Of a DNA stretch of 64,000 bases, positions 18,519-59,099 are shown piece by piece. The position numbers and the translations under genes are program-made. Every line of letters starts with the position of its first letter. Position 1 is the first letter of the stretch. This DNA is from Streptantibioticus silvisoli (GTDB lineage: Bacteria > Actinomycetota > Actinomycetes > Streptomycetales > Streptomycetaceae). The stretch lies in assembly GCF_027947535.2 (NCBI RefSeq), contig NZ_JAAGKO020000002.1:1-64000 (forward strand), read 5' to 3'. The notes under the pieces are model-generated. The model was not told where the DNA came from and searched no databases. It worked only from the letters and a program-made list of their open reading frames with translations.

Positions 18519-19619
18519 GTGTCCGAGCTTCCCGTTCCCGAGCTGCCGATCCTCGATCCGCTGGCCGCGCTGCGCCGCGCCGGGGACCCCGGGACCGACG
18601 TCTACCTGACCGGGACCGTCTTCCTGGACATCATCTTCACCGGCATGCGCAGCGCACCGGTACGCGGCACCGAGACCTGGGCCCGCGGCATGGGCTCCAG
18701 CCCCGGCGGCATCGCCAACATGGCCACCGCCCTGGCCCGGCTGGGCCTGCGCACCTCGCTGGCCGCCGCGTTCGGCGACGACGTCTACGGCGACTTCTGC
18801 TGGGAGTGCCTGGAACGCGACGAGGGCATCGACCTGACGCACTCGCGCCGGGTCCGCGGCTGGCACTCGCCGGTGACGGTCTCCATGGCGTACGAGGACG
18901 AGCGCACCATGGTCAGCCACGGCCACGAGGCCCCGCCGCCGGAGGAACCCGCCCCCAGCTGCCCGCCGGCCTCCCGCGCGTCGATCGCCTCGCTGGCCCA
19001 GGGCCGCCGCGAGGAGTGGATCGAGCACGCCGCCCGGCACGGCAGCCGGATCTTCGCCGACGTCGGCTGGGACGAGACCGGCCGCTGGGACCCCGCCGAC
19101 CTCGCCGACCTCGAACACTGCGACGCCTTCCTGCCCAACGCCGACGAGGCGATGCGCTACACCCGTACCGACGACCCGCGCATGGCGGCCCGCAAGCTCG
19201 CCGAACGCGTGCCGGTCGCCGTCGTCACCATGGGCTCGCGCGGCGCGTGCGCGGTCGACTCCGCCACCGGGGAGTCCGCCGAGGTGCCCGCCCTGCTGGT
19301 CGACGCCCTCGACCCCACCGGCGCCGGCGACGTCTTCGTCGCCGGGTTCGTCACCGGCTCACTGGCCGGCTGGCCGCTGGCCGACCGGCTCGCCTTCGCC
19401 AGCCTGACCGCCGCGCTGTCCGTCCAGGAGTTCGGCGGCTCGCTGTCCGCGCCCGGCTGGGTGGAGATCGCCGCCTGGTGGCAGCACGCGAAGTCCTACG
19501 ACGACCAGGACCGCGCCGCGCTGCGCCGCTACGCCTTCCTCGACGACCTGCTGCCCTGCGGCTCGCGCCGCTGGCCGCTGCGCCGCGCGGTGCCCACCAT
19601 CGGCTTCCGCACCGGATGA
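18519..19619 (+). CDS. PfkB-family carbohydrate kinase
   Basis: A 366-aa ribokinase/PfkB-type sugar kinase. The N-terminal substrate-binding segment has GGIANMATALARLGL. The C-terminal PfkB signature DPTGAGDVFVAGFV holds the anion hole and the catalytic base Asp. The GTG at 18519 follows GAAAGGA (18504-18510) at proper spacing. The sugar cannot be read from sequence; no transporter or catabolic gene is adjacent. The stop codon lies inside the first of three 20-bp tandem units. Confidence 0.88.
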   Translation: MSELPVPELPILDPLAALRRAGDPGTDVYLTGTVFLDIIFTGMRSAPVRGTETWARGMGSSPGGIANMATALARLGLRTSLAAAFGDDVYGDFCWECLERDEGIDLTHSRRVRGWHSPVTVSMAYEDERTMVSHGHEAPPPEEPAPSCPPASRASIASLAQGRREEWIEHAARHGSRIFADVGWDETGRWDPADLADLEHCDAFLPNADEAMRYTRTDDPRMAARKLAERVPVAVVTMGSRGACAVDSATGESAEVPALLVDALDPTGAGDVFVAGFVTGSLAGWPLADRLAFASLTAALSVQEFGGSLSAPGWVEIAAWWQHAKSYDDQDRAALRRYAFLDDLLPCGSRRWPLRRAVPTIGFRTG

Positions 19620-19680
19620 TCGGCCGAAGCACCGGGTGACCGGCCAACGTACCGGGTGACCGGCCGGCGCACGCGGTGCG
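19611..19680 (+). repeat. Exact-period 20-bp tandem repeat spanning the kinase stop codon
   Basis: Units 19611-19630, 19631-19650 and 19651-19670 share ACCGG(A/G)TGA(T/C)CGGCC plus a variable five-base end; a partial copy follows to 19680. The first unit contains the TGA stop codon of the PfkB kinase (19617-19619), and each later unit repeats the same TGA. Confidence 0.85.
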
Positions 19681-19826
19681 CGGGGCCCGCGGGCCGGGCC
19701 GGCGGCGGAACCGGACGGCAAATGCCCTCGGTACGTGGCGCCCCGGCGTCGTACCCTGGACACCCAAGGCCTCACGCGGGCCCCATCGCACCGGAAAGCG
19801 GGACAGGTAGGCCCTAGAGCCGGCCC

Positions 19827-20870
19827 ATGACACAGACACCGACCCAGCACCAGAAGCAGGCACGCGCCCACTTCGTCGTTCCGGCCAAGCACCCCATGGT
19901 CACCGTTCTGGGATCGGGTGACTCCCTGCTGCGCGTGATCGAGTCGTCCTTCCCCGAGGTCGACATCCACGTGCGCGGCAACGAGGTCAGCGCCACCGGC
20001 GACGCCGCCGAAGTGGCCCTGGTCCAGCGGCTGTTCGACGAGATGATGATCGTGCTGCGCGCCGGTCAGCCGATGACCGAGGACGCGGTGGAACGCTCCG
20101 TCGCGATGCTCCGCAAGAGCGGCACCCCCGGCGCCGACCCCGAGACCCCGGCCCAGGTGCTGACGCAGAACATCCTGTCCAGCCGCGGCCGCACCATCCG
20201 GCCCAAGACGCTCAACCAGAAGCGCTACGTCGACGCCATCGACACCCACACCATCGTCTTCGGCATCGGCCCGGCCGGCACCGGCAAGACCTACCTGGCG
20301 ATGGCCAAGGCCGTGCAGGCCCTTCAGTCCAAGCAGGTCAACCGGATCATCCTCACCCGCCCCGCGGTCGAGGCCGGCGAACGCCTCGGCTTCCTGCCCG
20401 GCACCCTGTACGAGAAGATCGACCCCTACCTGCGCCCGCTCTACGACGCGCTGCACGACATGGTCGACCCCGACTCCATCCCGCGCCTGATGGCGGCCGG
20501 CACCATCGAGGTCGCCCCGCTCGCCTACATGCGCGGCCGCACGCTCAACGACGCGTTCATCATCCTCGACGAGGCGCAGAACACCTCCGCCGAGCAGATG
20601 AAGATGTTCCTCACCCGGCTCGGCTTCGACTCCAAGATCGTGGTCACCGGCGACGTCACCCAGATCGACCTGCCCGGCGGCGGCACCAAGAGCGGCCTGC
20701 GCCAGGTCCAGGAGATCCTCGACGGCGTCGACGACGTGCACTTCGCCCGCCTGAACAGCACCGACGTGGTCCGCCACAAGCTCGTCGGCCGGATCGTGGA
20801 CGCCTACGAGGCGTTCGACAGCCGCACCGGGCAGCCCCCGGCCGCCGGCTCCCGCAGCGACAGAAAGTAA
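19827..20870 (+). CDS. PhoH-like ATPase
   Basis: A 347-aa PhoH/YbeZ-type protein. Walker A GPAGTGKT is at residues 148-155 and Walker B/DEAQ-like motif is [27 protein letters not shown] and [11 protein letters not shown] are the family's helicase-like motifs. An N-terminal KH-like RNA-binding region precedes them. In bacteria YbeZ works with the endoribonuclease YbeY in rRNA maturation and ribosome quality control; here ybeY follows 13 bases later, supporting the same partnership. The ATG at 19827 starts [19 protein letters not shown]. Confidence 0.93.
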
Positions 20871-24099: not shown

Positions 24100-24570
24100 G
24101 CGAGCTGCCGCCGGCGCCGCCGGCGGTCGCGCCCGCACCTCCGTCCCCGCCCCGCACCGCTGACCCGGTGCTGCCGGCGCCGCCGGCGGTCGCGCCCCGG
24201 GGTGCCGGGTTCGGGCGCCGGTCATGTGCGGGCTGCCGACCTGATCCCGGCCCGCACCGGTGCCGGTGCCACCGGCGGTCAGAGGCGCACCTCCGCTCCC
24301 CGGCCCGCTCCCGCCCCGCTGACGCCGGTCGGACGCTGACCTCCGCCCCGCTCCCACCGCTGACGCCGGTCAGCCGCCCACCCCCCGTCCCCGCCCGCCC
24401 CGCTGACGCCGATACCGCCGGCGGTCGGGCCCGCTGGCGTCGGTCGGACGTGCGCCTCCTCCGTCCCCGCCCGCACCGCTGACCCGGTGCCGCCGGCGGT
24501 CGGGCCCGCTGGCGTCGGTCGGGCGCGCACCTCCCCGGACCCCGCCCGCGCCGCGCCCCCGCCCCCGCCG
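24100..24570. repeat. 471-bp convergent gap with long degenerate repeats
   Basis: No gene is supported between era and the emfourin gene. Segments such as CCGCCGGCGGTCGGGCCCG recur: a 33-base block is identical at 24415-24447 and 24490-24522, a 75-bp offset. Shorter CCGCTGACGCCGGTC and CGCCGGCGGTCG copies fill the rest. Frames on the minus strand read through repeated (RPTPAGPTAGG)-type peptides, which is a product of the repeat, not a gene. Confidence 0.75.
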
Positions 24571-36920: not shown

Positions 36921-36957
36921 CATCACCGGCTCGCGTACCCCGGACCCGCCGGACCCT

Positions 36958-37263
36958 CGCCCGACGCCCCCGCCCGCCGACCTCCTCGCCCGAGGCCCCC
37001 GCCCGCCGAACCCCTCGACCGCCGGTCCCGTCCCCCGGGACTCCGTCGTCCCCGTCTCCCTCCCGTCCCCTCGCCCCGCGATACGCGGTCCGTCGGGTAC
37101 CCCGTCCGGCGGCGCCCATCGCGCCGCCCTCGCGCCGCCCGACGCGGCGCCCCTCACGCCGCCCTCGCGCCGCCCGACGCGGCACCCCTCGCGCCGCCTT
37201 GGCGCGGCAGGCGCACGCCGCCGGACGCGCCCCCTCATGCCACCTGGCGCGGCAGGCGCACGC
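36958..37263. repeat. Tandem repeats beyond the second MFS gene, including a duplicated coding end
   Basis: A 29-bp unit occurs twice at 36958-37015. A 27-base block is identical at 37122-37148 and 37157-37183 (35-bp period), with a diverged third copy at 37192. TGGCGCGGCAGGCGCACGC occurs exactly at 37200-37218 and at 37245-37263, the latter encoding the last residues of the MFS protein. There is no gene in this stretch. Confidence 0.8.
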
Positions 37264-38856: not shown

Positions 38857-39747
38857 ATGACCGCCACGCCATCACCCGCCCCGGCCGCCGGCGAACTGAT
38901 CCGGCGCCGTGAACTCGCCGATTTCCTGCGCAGCCGGCGGGAGCGGATCACCCCGGACCAGGTCGGCCTGCCCCCCGGACGCCGCCGGCGCACCCCGGGG
39001 CTGCGCCGCGAGGAGGTCGCCCAGCTCTCGGCGGTCGGGGTCACCTGGTACACGTGGCTGGAGCAGGCCCGCGACATCCAGGTGTCCGCCCAGGTCCTCG
39101 ACGCGGTCGCGCGGGCGCTGCTGCTCGACCGGAACGAGCGCGCCCACCTGTTCGTGCTCGCCGGGGTCCCGGACCCCTCGCCCAGCAAGGACTGCCCGTA
39201 CGTCACGCCGTCGCTGCTGGCGATGATGCGGCAGCTGGAACCGCTGCCCGCCTGTGTGATGAACAGCCGGTACGACATTCTCGCGTACAACCGCACGTAC
39301 GCCCATCTGGTCAGCGACCTCGACCAGGTCCCGGACGCCGACCGCAACCTGCTGTGGCTGGTCTTCACCCACCCCGACTGGCGCGAGGCGGTGGTGGACC
39401 GCGACGAGTTCACCCGCCGCTGCACCGCCCAGTTGCGCGCCGCGATGGCCGAGCACGTCGCGGAACCGGCGTGGAAGACGCTGGTCAAGCGGTTGCGCCA
39501 GACGTCGCAGGAGTTCGAGCAGCTGTGGGCGCGGCACGAGGTGGTCCGGCCCTCCAGCACGCCCAAGCGGTTCCTCAACGCCCGCGTCGGCCTGCTCAAC
39601 CTCCAGCACAGCAGCATGTGGCTGGGCCCGGGCAACGGCAGCCGCATGGTGGTCTACACCCCGCTCGACGACGAGGCCCGCACCCGCCTGGAGATCCTGC
39701 TGGCCGCCGTGCGGGCCGAACCGCCGCGGCTGACCGTCGCCGTGTGA
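38857..39747 (+). CDS. XRE-type regulator with MmyB-like ligand domain
   Basis: A 296-aa regulator. The N-terminal XRE helix-turn-helix includes GLRREEVAQLSAVGVTWYTWLEQARDIQVSAQVLDAVARALLLDRNERAHLFVLAG. The C-terminal MmyB-like domain (YDILAYNRTYAHLVSDL...NLLWLVFTHPDWRE...GNGSRMVVYTPLDDEARTRLEILL) is a ligand-binding PAS-like fold, in which related proteins bind fatty-acid-like ligands. In actinomycetes such regulators usually sit beside a divergent transporter or oxidoreductase they control, as here. The ATG at 38857 gives MTATPSPAPAAGELIRRREL. Confidence 0.92.
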   Translation: MTATPSPAPAAGELIRRRELADFLRSRRERITPDQVGLPPGRRRRTPGLRREEVAQLSAVGVTWYTWLEQARDIQVSAQVLDAVARALLLDRNERAHLFVLAGVPDPSPSKDCPYVTPSLLAMMRQLEPLPACVMNSRYDILAYNRTYAHLVSDLDQVPDADRNLLWLVFTHPDWREAVVDRDEFTRRCTAQLRAAMAEHVAEPAWKTLVKRLRQTSQEFEQLWARHEVVRPSSTPKRFLNARVGLLNLQHSSMWLGPGNGSRMVVYTPLDDEARTRLEILLAAVRAEPPRLTVAV

Positions 39748-39832
39748 CCCCGCCGTCCGGACCGCCGCGGCTGACCGCCGCCGTCCGAACCGCCGCCGTC
39801 CGAACCCCGCTGTCCGAACCGCCGCCGTCCCC
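39721..39832 (+). repeat. Repeat duplicating the 3' end of the XRE gene
   Basis: CCGCCGCGGCTGACCG, the codons for the last residues (PPRLT), occurs at 39721-39736 inside the gene and again at 39762-39777 after its stop codon. It is followed by several (GAA)CCGCCGCCGTCC copies up to about 39832. Confidence 0.75.
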
Positions 39833-52086: not shown

Positions 52087-52368
52087 ATGACCGACGACAT
52101 CAGCCACTTCCGCGCACCGGACCCGCTGTCCGTCCCCGTCTCCTGCTGGTCCGGCGGACCGGAGGCGCTGCCCCGCCCGGCCCCGCCCGCCGAGGACGTC
52201 TTCGGCAGCGCGGAGACCCTCATGACCCGCTTCACCGCGCAGCTGACCGTCCAGCTCGCCCACCTGCGCCCCTTCCCGCAGCCCACCGGAGCCGACGCCG
52301 GCCCCCCGTTACGCCGACGCGCCCCCCGGGCCGGTACGGCTGACGCCACGCCGCCCCCGTACGGCTGA
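52087..52368 (+). CDS. 93-residue hypothetical protein
   Basis: A short ORF starting at ATG 52087: MTDDISHFRAPDPL, a middle VSCWSGGPEALPRP and then EDVFGSAETLMTRFTAQLTVQLAHLRP. The C-terminus is Pro/Arg-rich and its end overlaps a tandem repeat, with the TGA inside the second repeat copy, so the original end may have been earlier. No family recognised. Codon use is normal for the region. Confidence 0.6.
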   Translation: MTDDISHFRAPDPLSVPVSCWSGGPEALPRPAPPAEDVFGSAETLMTRFTAQLTVQLAHLRPFPQPTGADAGPPLRRRAPRAGTADATPPPYG

Positions 52369-52440
52369 CGCGACCCCGGAGCCCCCGCGCCGCTGACGTG
52401 CCCCCGCCCGCGTACCGCTGACGCCACGCCGGGCCCGTAC
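52334..52440 (+). repeat. Tandem 25-28-bp repeat around the hypothetical gene's stop codon
   Basis: GTACGGCTGACGC occurs exactly at 52334-52346 and 52359-52371; related CCGCTGACG copies begin at 52390 and 52415. The stop codon of the 93-residue ORF (52366-52368) lies within the second copy. Confidence 0.75.
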
Positions 52441-52505
52441 CACCGGACCGGCCCCCCGCCCCGCCGGACGCGCATGACCTCGGCCAGGCCGGTTACGGTC
52501 GTCGT

Positions 52506-53825
52506 ATGAACGGGAACCCGCCGGTGACGGCCGCGCACGCCACCGCCTCCGACGCGCCGTACGAAGAGGCGGCCACCGAGCGCTGGGTCCCGGAGCCGGA
52601 CAAGCGCGCCGGGCGCACCGCGTTCCAGCGCGACCGCGCCCGGGTGCTGCACTCCGCCGCGCTGCGCCGGCTGGCCGGCAAGACCCAGGTCGTCGACCCC
52701 GGTGCGGGCTCGCCGGAGATCAACACCTCACCGCGCACCCGGCTGACCCACTCCCTCGAATGCGCCCAGGTGGGACGGGAGTTGGGCGCCGCGCTCGGCT
52801 GCGACCCGGACCTGGTGGAGACCGCCTGCCTCGCGCACGACCTGGGCCACCCGCCGTTCGGGCACAACGGCGAACAGGCGCTGGCCGACGTGGCCCGCGA
52901 CATCGGCGGCTTCGAGGGCAACGCCCAGTCGCTGCGGCTGCTCACCCGGATCGAGCCCAAGCGGTTCACCACCGACGCGTCCGGCACCACGGTCGGCGTC
53001 GGCCTCAACCTCACCCGGGCCGCGCTGGACGCCGCCACCAAGTACCCCTGGCCGCGCGGCGAACGCCCCGGCGACCCCGGATCGCCGAAGTTCGGCGTCT
53101 ACGAGGACGACGAACCCGTCTTCCGCTGGCTGCGCGACGGAGCCCCGGCCGGGACGCGCTGCTTCGAGGCGGAGGTCATGGACTGGTCCGACGACGTCGC
53201 CTACTCGGTGCACGACGTCGAGGACGGCCTGCACGCCGGCCACCTCGACCCCAACATGCTGCACGCCGAGCCGGAACGCCGGGAGATCAGCGCGGTGGCC
53301 GCCGCCCGGTACGCGCCCGGCGCCGACCCGGCCGAGCTGACCGCGGCCCTCGACCGGCTGCTCGACCAGGAGTGGTGGCCGCACGGCTACGACGGCTCCG
53401 CGATCGCCCAGGCCCGGCTGAAGGACGCCACCTCCCAGCTCATCGGCCGCTTCTGCCTGGCCGCCGAACGCGCCACCCGCGACGCCTACGGCCCCGGCCG
53501 GCTGACCCGCTACGCCGCCCGGCTGGTCGTGCCGCGCGACGTCGTCCTGGAGTGCGCGATGCTCAAGGCGGTCGCCGACCGCTACGTCATGCAGCGCGCC
53601 GACCAGGCCCGCCGCCGCGCCGACCAGCGCGTCGTCATCGCCGAACTCGCCGAGTCGATCGCCGAGCGGGCCCCGGAGGGACTGACGCCGGAGTTCCGCG
53701 GCGCCTGGCACACCGCCGCCGATGACCGCGCCCGCGCCCGGGTCGTGGTCGACCAGATCGCCTCCCTCACCGACGCCGCCGCCATCACCCTGCACGCCCG
53801 CCTCACCGCCCGCACCCGCCCCTGA
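52506..53825 (+). CDS. dgt: Deoxyguanosinetriphosphate triphosphohydrolase-like protein
   Basis: A 439-aa HD-domain dNTP triphosphohydrolase that turns dNTPs into deoxynucleosides and triphosphate. Metal ligands are in the [17 protein letters not shown] and [15 protein letters not shown] motifs (H...HD...D), and [15 protein letters not shown] supplies the distal Asp. In actinomycetes this gene lies near dnaG, as here. The ATG at 52506 starts [22 protein letters not shown] 56-bp tandem unit begins in its last codons. Confidence 0.94.
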
Positions 53826-53960
53826 CGCCCTGCCACCCCTGGGGGACGGCTACCGCCCCTGGCATCCGCACCCGCCCCTGACGCCCCGGCACCCCCGGGG
53901 AGCGACCCCCGCCTCTGGCATCCACTCCCGCCCCTGATGTCCCGTCACCCCCGAGGAACG
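53817..53960 (+). repeat. 56-bp tandem repeat beginning at the dgt stop codon
   Basis: CGCCCCTGA begins at 53817, 53873 and 53929, exactly 56 bases apart. The first copy is the end of dgt (CGC CCC TGA). Following segments share CCCCTGGCATCC-like and CACCCCCG-like blocks with substitutions; the third copy is partial. Confidence 0.85.
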
Positions 53961-54158
53961 CCCCCGCCCCCGGCGCCCCGCGGCGGCGCGGTCCTTTCCA
54001 CCATTTCGTGGCCGATCGGTGAAGACCCCGCGAAGCAGGACCGTTCCTGCCGAACCGATCCGGCCTCCTGCGGTGCGGCGCTCTTCCCGCGAGCCGTGCG
54101 GTGAGGGACGCTCCGGTGAGAAGGATTCGCCGGGGGAATCCGCGCGAGGAGGCGCACA
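53826..54158. other. Gap between dgt and the FAD reductase gene
   Basis: The left half is the 56-bp tandem array. The right half (about 53990-54158) contains the probable promoter of the reductase gene, with no structure recognised. Confidence 0.6.
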
Positions 54159-57588: not shown

Positions 57589-58650
57589 GTGCAGATCAAG
57601 GCTCCGGAACCCCAACTCACCACCCCCGACGCCCCACCGGTCCAGGTCCAGGGACCGGTCCAGGTCCAGGTACCGGTCCAGCGCCGTGCCGCCGCCCGGC
57701 CGGACCGCCCCGACGCCGGCCCCTCCTCCGACCTGCTGCGCGTCTACCTGCGCGAGATAGGCCGCGTTCCGCTGCTGACCGGCGACGACGAGGTGGAACT
57801 CGCCCGCGCCGTCGAGGCCGGGCTGTTCGCGCAGGAGCGGCTGGCCGCCGGGTCCGTCCCCCTCGACCCCGCCGACCCCGCCGACCCGCGGCTCGCCGAC
57901 GACCTCGACCGGCTGGTGGTCCGCGGCCGGCTCGCCAAACGCCGGCTGATCGAGGCCAACCTGCGGCTGGTGGTCTCCATCGCCAAACGCCACGCCGGCC
58001 GCGGCCTGACCCTGCTCGACCTGGTCCAGGAGGGCAACCTCGGCCTGATCCGCGCGGTGGAGAAGTTCGACCACACCCGCGGCTACAAGTTCTCCACCTA
58101 CGCGACCTGGTGGATCCGGCAGTCCATCAGCCGCGCGCTGGCCGACCAGGCCCGCACCATCCGCGTCCCGGCACACGTCGTCGACCAGATGAACCGGGTC
58201 CTGCGGCTGCGCCGGACGCTGCACCAGGAACGCGGCCTGCCGCCCGGCAACGCCGAAGTCGCCGTCCTGGTCGGCCAGTCCGCCGAACGCGTCGCCGAAC
58301 TGCTGCGGCTGGCCCAGGAACCGGTCTCCCTGCACACCCCCGTCGGCGAGCGCGACAGCCTCCAGCTCGCCGACCTCATCGAGGACACCGAGGCCGCCTC
58401 GCCGCCGGACTCCGCCGCGTTCCTGCTGCTGCGCGAGCACCTGGCCGCGGTGCTGTCCACCCTCGGCCCGCGCGAACGCGAGGTCGTCCAGCTGCGCTAC
58501 GGCCTGCGCGACGGCCGCCCCCGCACCCTGGAGGAGATCGGCCGGATCTTCGGCGTCACCCGCGAACGCGTCCGGCAGATCGAGTCCCGCACCCTGCGCA
58601 AACTCCGCGAGCACGCCTGCGTCGAACAGCTGCGGGGGTATCTGGACTGA
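57589..58650 (+). CDS. RNA polymerase sigma factor, group 2 (Hrd type, possibly HrdA)
   Basis: A 353-aa sigma-70 protein without region 1.1. The N-terminus is Pro/Gln-rich with [14 protein letters not shown] repeats, then [33 protein letters not shown] (region 1.2). Region 2 is [70 protein letters not shown]. Regions 3 and 4 follow, ending [31 protein letters not shown], very close to the principal sigma consensus. The GTG at 57589 has GGGAGG upstream. Location next to dnaG favours HrdA among the Streptomyces Hrd sigmas. Confidence 0.93.
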
Positions 58651-59099
58651 GGGGGGTTGCCGCCGGGCGTGGCGGGGGCCGCCGTCGGGCGTGGCGGGGG
58701 CCGCCGCCGGGCGTGGCGAGGTCCGCCGTCGGGCGTGGCGGGGCCGCCGTCGGCCGTGGTCGGGGGTGCTGAGGGGTGCCGCCAGCGGTGGCGGGGGTGC
58801 CGACCGGTGGGGGCGGGGCTGCGGGCGGTGAGGGGAGCCGCAGGCGGGTGTGGCGGGGAGCCGTGTGCAGCCGCTGCCAGTGGTGCTGAAGGCTGCCGCC
58901 GGCCGTGGCGAGGGCCGCCGCCAGCGTGCGCAGGCCCGCCCGCCGGTCGTGCCGGGGAGCGGATGGTGCCCTGACGGGGGAGCGGGTGGAGGCTCCGGTG
59001 GTGGCCGACGGGCACCCGAGAGCGCCTGACCGGAAGCCGGTGATGCCTGCCGGAGCGCCGGTGGTGATCCGTTTCTGCGACAGTCTTACCGTCGGGCGG
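58651..59099. other. 449-bp convergent gap between the sigma gene and xylB
   Basis: The left part is a tandem 22-bp array; the rest (to about 58965) is diverged sequence of the same GTGGCGGGG/GCCGCC type. Reading frames here produce only Gly/Ala/Arg repeats. No gene or clear terminator is seen. Confidence 0.65.
58660..58765 (+). repeat. Five tandem ~22-bp units after the sigma factor gene
   Basis: CCGCCG(T/C)CGGGCGTGGCGGGG units occupy 58660-58678 (short), 58679-58700, 58701-58722, 58723-58743 and 58744-58765 (diverged). The array starts nine bases after the sigma factor stop codon. Confidence 0.8.

What the first reader, a model, noticed from the sequence alone, without database searches (positions are those of the whole stretch)
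19611..19680. Stop codon of the PfkB kinase is copied in an exact 20-bp array
Three units of exactly 20 bases (19611, 19631, 19651) each contain ACCGG-TGA-CGGCC; the first is the real gene end. This is direct evidence that a gene 3' end was duplicated in tandem, and it provides TGA codons at 20-bp steps, which falls in different frames.
Basis: seen in the sequence. Interest (0 to 1): 0.6.

Follow-up and report, generated by a model that had tools for sequence, protein, structure and literature searches.

The report
Tandem repeat copying a gene's end
The last few bases of a streptomycete sugar-kinase gene, including its stop codon, were duplicated in tandem several times in the spacer after the gene; this is probably harmless DNA slippage that happens at many gene ends in these bacteria, not a backup stop-codon device.

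Summary
The array is real, but longer and less exact than described: four 20-bp units, 19599-19678, at fixed spacing but only 65-80% alike. Unit 1 is the true 3' end of a PfkB-family kinase gene. It carries Ile/Leu-Gly-Phe codons found in 81 of 83 orthologs, so the gene end is the likely source and the spacer copies are derived. The reading "a gene 3' end was duplicated in tandem" holds.

It is not unusual in its setting. Of 86 ortholog loci, 20 have their own array in the same post-stop spacer, with unrelated units, and 8 copy the stop; on the kinase tree 19 arrays need 19 changes. One sister pair (97% identical kinase) shows a 21-bp gain including the stop. In the window's genome 24% of gene 3' flanks hold such arrays (shuffled null 0.3%) against 8% of 5' flanks.

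Stops are copied no more often than random placement predicts (18 seen, 22 ± 4 expected). Periods show no frame preference, arrays fold less stably than other 3' flanks, and readthrough of the kinase stop would miss both copied TGAs. Best explanation: slippage duplication tolerated just after stop codons; no function shown. Array load varies widely between genera without following GC.

The parts
18519..19619 (+). PfkB-family carbohydrate kinase gene (GTG start inferred from an upstream AAAGGAG; stop TGA 19617-19619)
   Evidence: Pfam PF00294 E=1.7e-34; frame and stop from sequence
19599..19618 (+). Array unit 1: coding end of the kinase, likely the source copy (ATCGGCTTCCGCACCGGATG)
   Evidence: Ile/Leu-Gly-Phe codons present in 81 of 83 orthologs; unit alignment
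19619..19638 (+). Array unit 2, derived copy; TGA copy at 19637-19639 spans the border with unit 3
   Evidence: 15 of 20 bases as unit 1
19639..19658 (+). Array unit 3, derived copy; TGA copy at 19657-19659 spans the border with unit 4
   Evidence: 16 of 20 bases as unit 2
19659..19678 (+). Array unit 4, decayed, no TGA copy
   Evidence: 15 of 20 bases as unit 3
19747..19757 (+). Conserved motif CGTCGTACCCT, probably part of the phoH promoter (role inferred)
   Evidence: found about 80 nt before phoH in 57 of 77 orthologs
19827..20870 (+). phoH, the next gene downstream
   Evidence: Pfam PF02562 E=5.8e-97

Best explanation
A minisatellite formed by stepwise tandem duplication of the kinase gene's last ~20 bp, most likely by replication slippage between short direct repeats such as ATCGGC...ATCGGC. 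The first duplication spanned the stop codon. Copy 1 kept the whole gene intact and the extra copies fell into the spacer before the phoH promoter, so the event was neutral and the copies have since diverged. Duplications of this kind are frequent in many Streptomycetaceae genomes and survive mainly downstream of stop codons, where they break neither reading frames nor ribosome-binding sites. The copied TGAs are passengers. Shown: the array, its polarity, independent gains in relatives, enrichment at gene 3' ends, stop-copying at the random rate. Inferred: slippage as the molecular step, and neutrality.
For: Unit 1 carries conserved coding sequence (81 of 83 orthologs). Twenty of 86 ortholog loci have their own significant array in the post-stop spacer with unrelated units, and 8 copy the stop. 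In the 83-row kinase tree, 19 array rows need 19 changes. Sister pair S. eurocidicus L061 / S. albireticuli L070 (97.2% identical kinase): a 21-bp duplication including the stop, spacer 165 vs 144 nt. Genome-wide in G000: arrays in 24.4% of 3' flanks vs 8.1% of 5' flanks, shuffled null 0.3% and 0.1%; stop copied 10 times, start 0. Over 12 genomes of the order: 156 of 1024 vs 62 of 1173 flanks (Fisher p=6e-15); boundary copied 27 vs 2 (p=1e-7). Stop-copying 18 observed vs 22.0 +/- 4.0 expected under uniform placement. Periods modulo 3: 33/36/37.
Against: Microhomology at unit borders was not tested across arrays. The array is old (65-80% identity between units), so the founding event at this locus cannot be seen directly. 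Array load varies strongly between genera (0-34% of 3' flanks) without following GC, so an unidentified lineage factor is involved; NucS and Ku are present in all 14 genomes checked and do not explain it.
Confidence: 0.82

Rival explanations
1. Fail-safe translation stop: the repeated TGA codons were kept because, at 20-bp steps, they supply stops in all three frames after the kinase and catch shifted ribosomes.
For: TGA copies at +17 nt (-1 frame) and +37 nt (+1 frame) after the stop.
Against: No in-frame stop for 195 nt after the kinase stop, so readthrough is not caught. Across 106 post-stop arrays the periods modulo 3 are 33/36/37, and stops are copied no more often than random placement gives. 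Relatives lack the copies or have unrelated arrays.
Confidence: 0.04
2. RNA or DNA signal: the array acts as a transcription terminator, RNA-stability element or binding-site array between the kinase and phoH.
For: Each of units 2 and 3 holds CCGG-GTGA-CCGG, which could form a small hairpin (sequence). Location between a gene end and a promoter.
Against: Fold of the region is no better than shuffles (z=-0.33); no terminator-like site; no Rfam match; arrays in this genome fold less stably than array-free 3' flanks (mean z -0.27 vs -1.33, p=0.002); not conserved in any relative.
Confidence: 0.07
3. Chance or spacer-born similarity: a GC-rich spacer array that grew by itself and merely resembles the gene end, without duplication of coding sequence.
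For: The part of unit 1 that is conserved in orthologs matches unit 2 at few positions beyond ATCGGC; the region is GC-rich.
Against: The register is kept across the stop with 15 of 20 matches between units 1 and 2; no shuffle reaches the score; stop-containing duplications are directly seen at this locus in L061 vs L070 and in L095, L097, L099.
Confidence: 0.07

Closest known systems
Bacterial minisatellites / VNTRs, e.g. the rnc-fpg1 intergenic array of the Mycobacterium tuberculosis complex (PMC2734929)
   Same: Species-limited direct-repeat array in the spacer after a gene's stop codon; near-empty spacer in related species
   Different: There the array starts 40 bp after the stop and varies among isolates; here it includes the stop codon and conserved C-terminal codons, and polymorphism is untested
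MIRU elements of mycobacteria (described in PMC2734929)
   Same: Short tandem repeats between genes of an actinobacterium
   Different: MIRUs are 40-100 bp repeats scattered over 41 places in H37Rv; here each locus has its own unit copied from local sequence
Tandem repeats of Borg elements (PMC9879509)
   Same: Arise independently, lineage-specific, can start inside the end of an ORF; most intergenic units not divisible by 3
   Different: Borg repeats are perfect and A-rich; these are diverged and GC-rich, on a bacterial chromosome
TAACTGA heptamer repeats of Beggiatoaceae (PMC4679880)
   Same: Tandem intergenic repeats that create stop codons in all three frames; 13 sets overlap an upstream stop
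   Different: One fixed 7-bp word at many loci, mostly just before start codons; here locus-specific words just after stops

Membership tests
Minisatellite / tandem-duplication array | Head-to-tail copies, period about 10-100 bp, beyond chance | tested here: met
   20-bp period, 4 units, 0 of 1000 shuffles
Minisatellite / tandem-duplication array | Copies derived from local sequence | tested here: met
   unit 1 is conserved coding sequence; unit is not a dispersed family
Minisatellite / tandem-duplication array | Presence varies between close relatives | tested here: met
   19 changes for 19 arrays on the kinase tree; sister pairs with and without arrays
VNTR | Copy number varies among strains of one species | not testable with these tools
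   only one genome of the genus is held
MIRU-type dispersed repeat | Same unit at many loci of the genome | tested here: not met
   two array copies plus 20 scattered one-mismatch hits in 8.7 Mb, none in arrays of the same unit among those inspected; reversed-pattern control 4
Intrinsic terminator | Stable hairpin followed by U-run | tested here: not met
   no site found; fold z=-0.33
Backup (tandem) stop codon | Second stop in frame shortly after the first | tested here: not met
   next frame-0 stop is 195 nt downstream; copied TGAs are out of frame

The most novel reading that the evidence does not exclude
Some streptomycete lineages carry a mutational process that makes short tandem duplications preferentially at gene 3' ends (for example linked to transcription termination, R-loops or replication-transcription encounters), so that the 3' excess reflects where duplications arise and not only where they survive. 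This would explain why array load ranges from 0% to 34% of 3' flanks among genera of similar GC.
Probability: 0.12. Interest if true: 0.6.

Novelty: new member of a known kind. Interest (0 to 1): 0.33.

Why it matters
The single array is ordinary for this group, but it exposes a measurable pattern: in some Streptomycetaceae genomes a fifth to a third of gene 3' flanks carry their own tandem array, while in others almost none do at the same GC. Spacers after stop codons could thus serve as a readout of the short-duplication rate. It also gives a caution: repeated stop codons just after a gene are expected by-products of such duplication and need no functional story.

Tried and rejected
Terminator or RNA-element reading not supported. 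Dispersed-repeat reading rejected. Frame-protection reading not supported. Absence of NucS or Ku as the cause of high array load rejected: both are present in all 14 genomes. Literature searches found no paper describing stop-copying arrays in Streptomyces; the library lacks most subscription journals, so this is no proof of novelty.

Full report
THE OBSERVATION. Window 19599-19678 holds four head-to-tail 20-bp units: ATCGGCTTCCGCACCGGATG, ATCGGCCGAAGCACCGGGTG, ACCGGCCAACGTACCGGGTG, ACCGGCCGGCGCACGCGGTG. The spacing is exact. The sequence is not: neighbouring units share 15-16 of 20 bases, units 1 and 4 share 13. TRF scores the array 81, and none of 1000 dinucleotide-preserving shuffles of the region reaches its self-match score (25 against a maximum of 17). 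The stop codon TGA (19617-19619) recurs at 19637 and 19657 in the -1 and +1 frames; unit 4 has lost it.

SURROUNDINGS. The gene is a PfkB-family kinase (PF00294, E=1.7e-34), followed by phoH (PF02562, E=5.8e-97); upstream lies RNase Z. The organism is an actinomycete whose nearest relatives are Streptomycetaceae (8.7 Mb, 130 contigs) and the only member of its genus held. Between stop and phoH lies a variable spacer, then a conserved motif CGTCGTACCCT (window 19747) about 80 nt before phoH, found in 57 of 77 orthologs and probably part of the phoH promoter (promoter role inferred). In several relatives the kinase stop sits only 23-24 nt before that motif. The array is therefore one of many expansions of this spacer.

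POLARITY. Unit 1 contains the Ile/Leu-Gly-Phe codons present near the gene end in 81 of 83 orthologs. The coding copy is therefore ancestral and the spacer copies derived. ATCGGC occurs at 19599 and again at 19619, exactly one period apart. It may be the short homology that seeded slippage, or simply the unit boundary; this locus alone cannot tell which.

SAME LOCUS IN RELATIVES. Scanning 86 orthologous kinase ends (a few are the same genome held twice, e.g. L006 and L047), 20 carry a significant array within 160 nt of the stop, periods 10-35, each with its own unit; 8 copy the stop. Examples: L095 has GGCCTGAGGCGGAGAGGGGCCCGCA twice, L097 a 23-bp unit, L099 a 35-bp unit, L058 an 11-bp unit. 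In the 83-row kinase tree, 19 array-bearing rows need 19 changes, so the tree shows no array shared by descent. S. eurocidicus (L061) and S. albireticuli (L070) have 97.2% identical kinases; L061 has CTTCCGCCAGCCGTGAGACCC CTTCCGCCACCCGTAAAACCC where L070 has one copy, with spacers of 165 and 144 nt. This is a stop-containing 21-bp duplication seen soon after birth. Other close pairs differ in having or lacking an array (L050/L056, L081/L082, L107/L109).

GENOME-WIDE. With a simple codon-bias gene caller (stop positions are exact for true genes, starts approximate), arrays cover 14.7% of convergent and 12.9% of co-directional spacer bases, 3.0% of divergent spacers and 1.1% of coding sequence in 454 kb of this genome. 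Counted per flank: 60 of 246 3' flanks (24.4%; null 0.3%) against 20 of 248 5' flanks (8.1%; null 0.1%); the stop was copied in 10, the start in none. The 5' figure is inflated because co-directional spacers count for both genes; convergent arrays can likewise count twice on the 3' side. Over 12 genomes of the order: 156 of 1024 against 62 of 1173 flanks (p=6e-15), boundary copied 27 against 2 (p=1e-7). A genome of another family in the same class (G054) has none in its flanks, and 150 kb of E. coli has no arrays at all. Load varies from 0% to 34% of 3' flanks between genera and does not follow GC.

WHY NO FUNCTION IS CLAIMED. If duplications land at random and those crossing the stop are tolerated, 22.0 +/- 4.0 of 106 post-stop arrays should copy the stop; 18 do. 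For starts, 5.8 +/- 2.1 of 36 are expected and 2 are seen, which fits selection against disturbing starts, though weakly. Periods modulo 3 are 33/36/37, so out-of-frame stops are not favoured. A ribosome reading through the kinase stop would meet no stop for 195 nt. Arrays fold less stably than array-free 3' flanks. There is no Rfam match and no terminator-like site.

COMPARISON AND VERDICT. The array works like, and belongs to, minisatellites made by local tandem duplication. It is not a MIRU-type dispersed element. The closest documented cases found are the rnc-fpg1 array of M. tuberculosis (PMC2734929), Borg repeats that may begin in the end of an ORF (PMC9879509), and TAACTGA repeats (PMC4679880). 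What deserves follow-up is the large difference in array load between genera.

LIMITS.

Noticed in passing
window 53810-53974: Tandem array of 56-bp units (TRF score 204) that starts inside the last codons of the gene ending at 53825 and copies its TGA stop.
   Followed up: partly
window 52303-52441: Another stop-copying array (period about 25 or 53) at the end of the called gene 52087-52368.
   Followed up: partly
window 58652-58766: 22-bp array (5 copies) beginning one or two bases after the stop of the gene ending at 58650.
   Followed up: partly
window 36945-37263 and 39716-39830: Clustered arrays (periods 29, 35, 45; and 41/29) at gene 3' ends on both strands, crossing the stops at 37235 (minus strand) and 39747.
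   Followed up: partly
window 24298-24554: Array with 43- and 75-bp periods filling the spacer between convergent gene ends.
   Followed up: no
G000, G012, G026 vs G015, G017, G005: Share of gene 3' flanks with tandem arrays differs from 22-34% to 0-3% among Streptomycetaceae genera of similar GC; cause unknown, not explained by presence of NucS or Ku.
   Followed up: partly
L145 2277-2526 (G009): Very clean 34-bp array (self-match score 190) that includes a gene's TAG stop, a candidate for copy-number typing.
   Followed up: no
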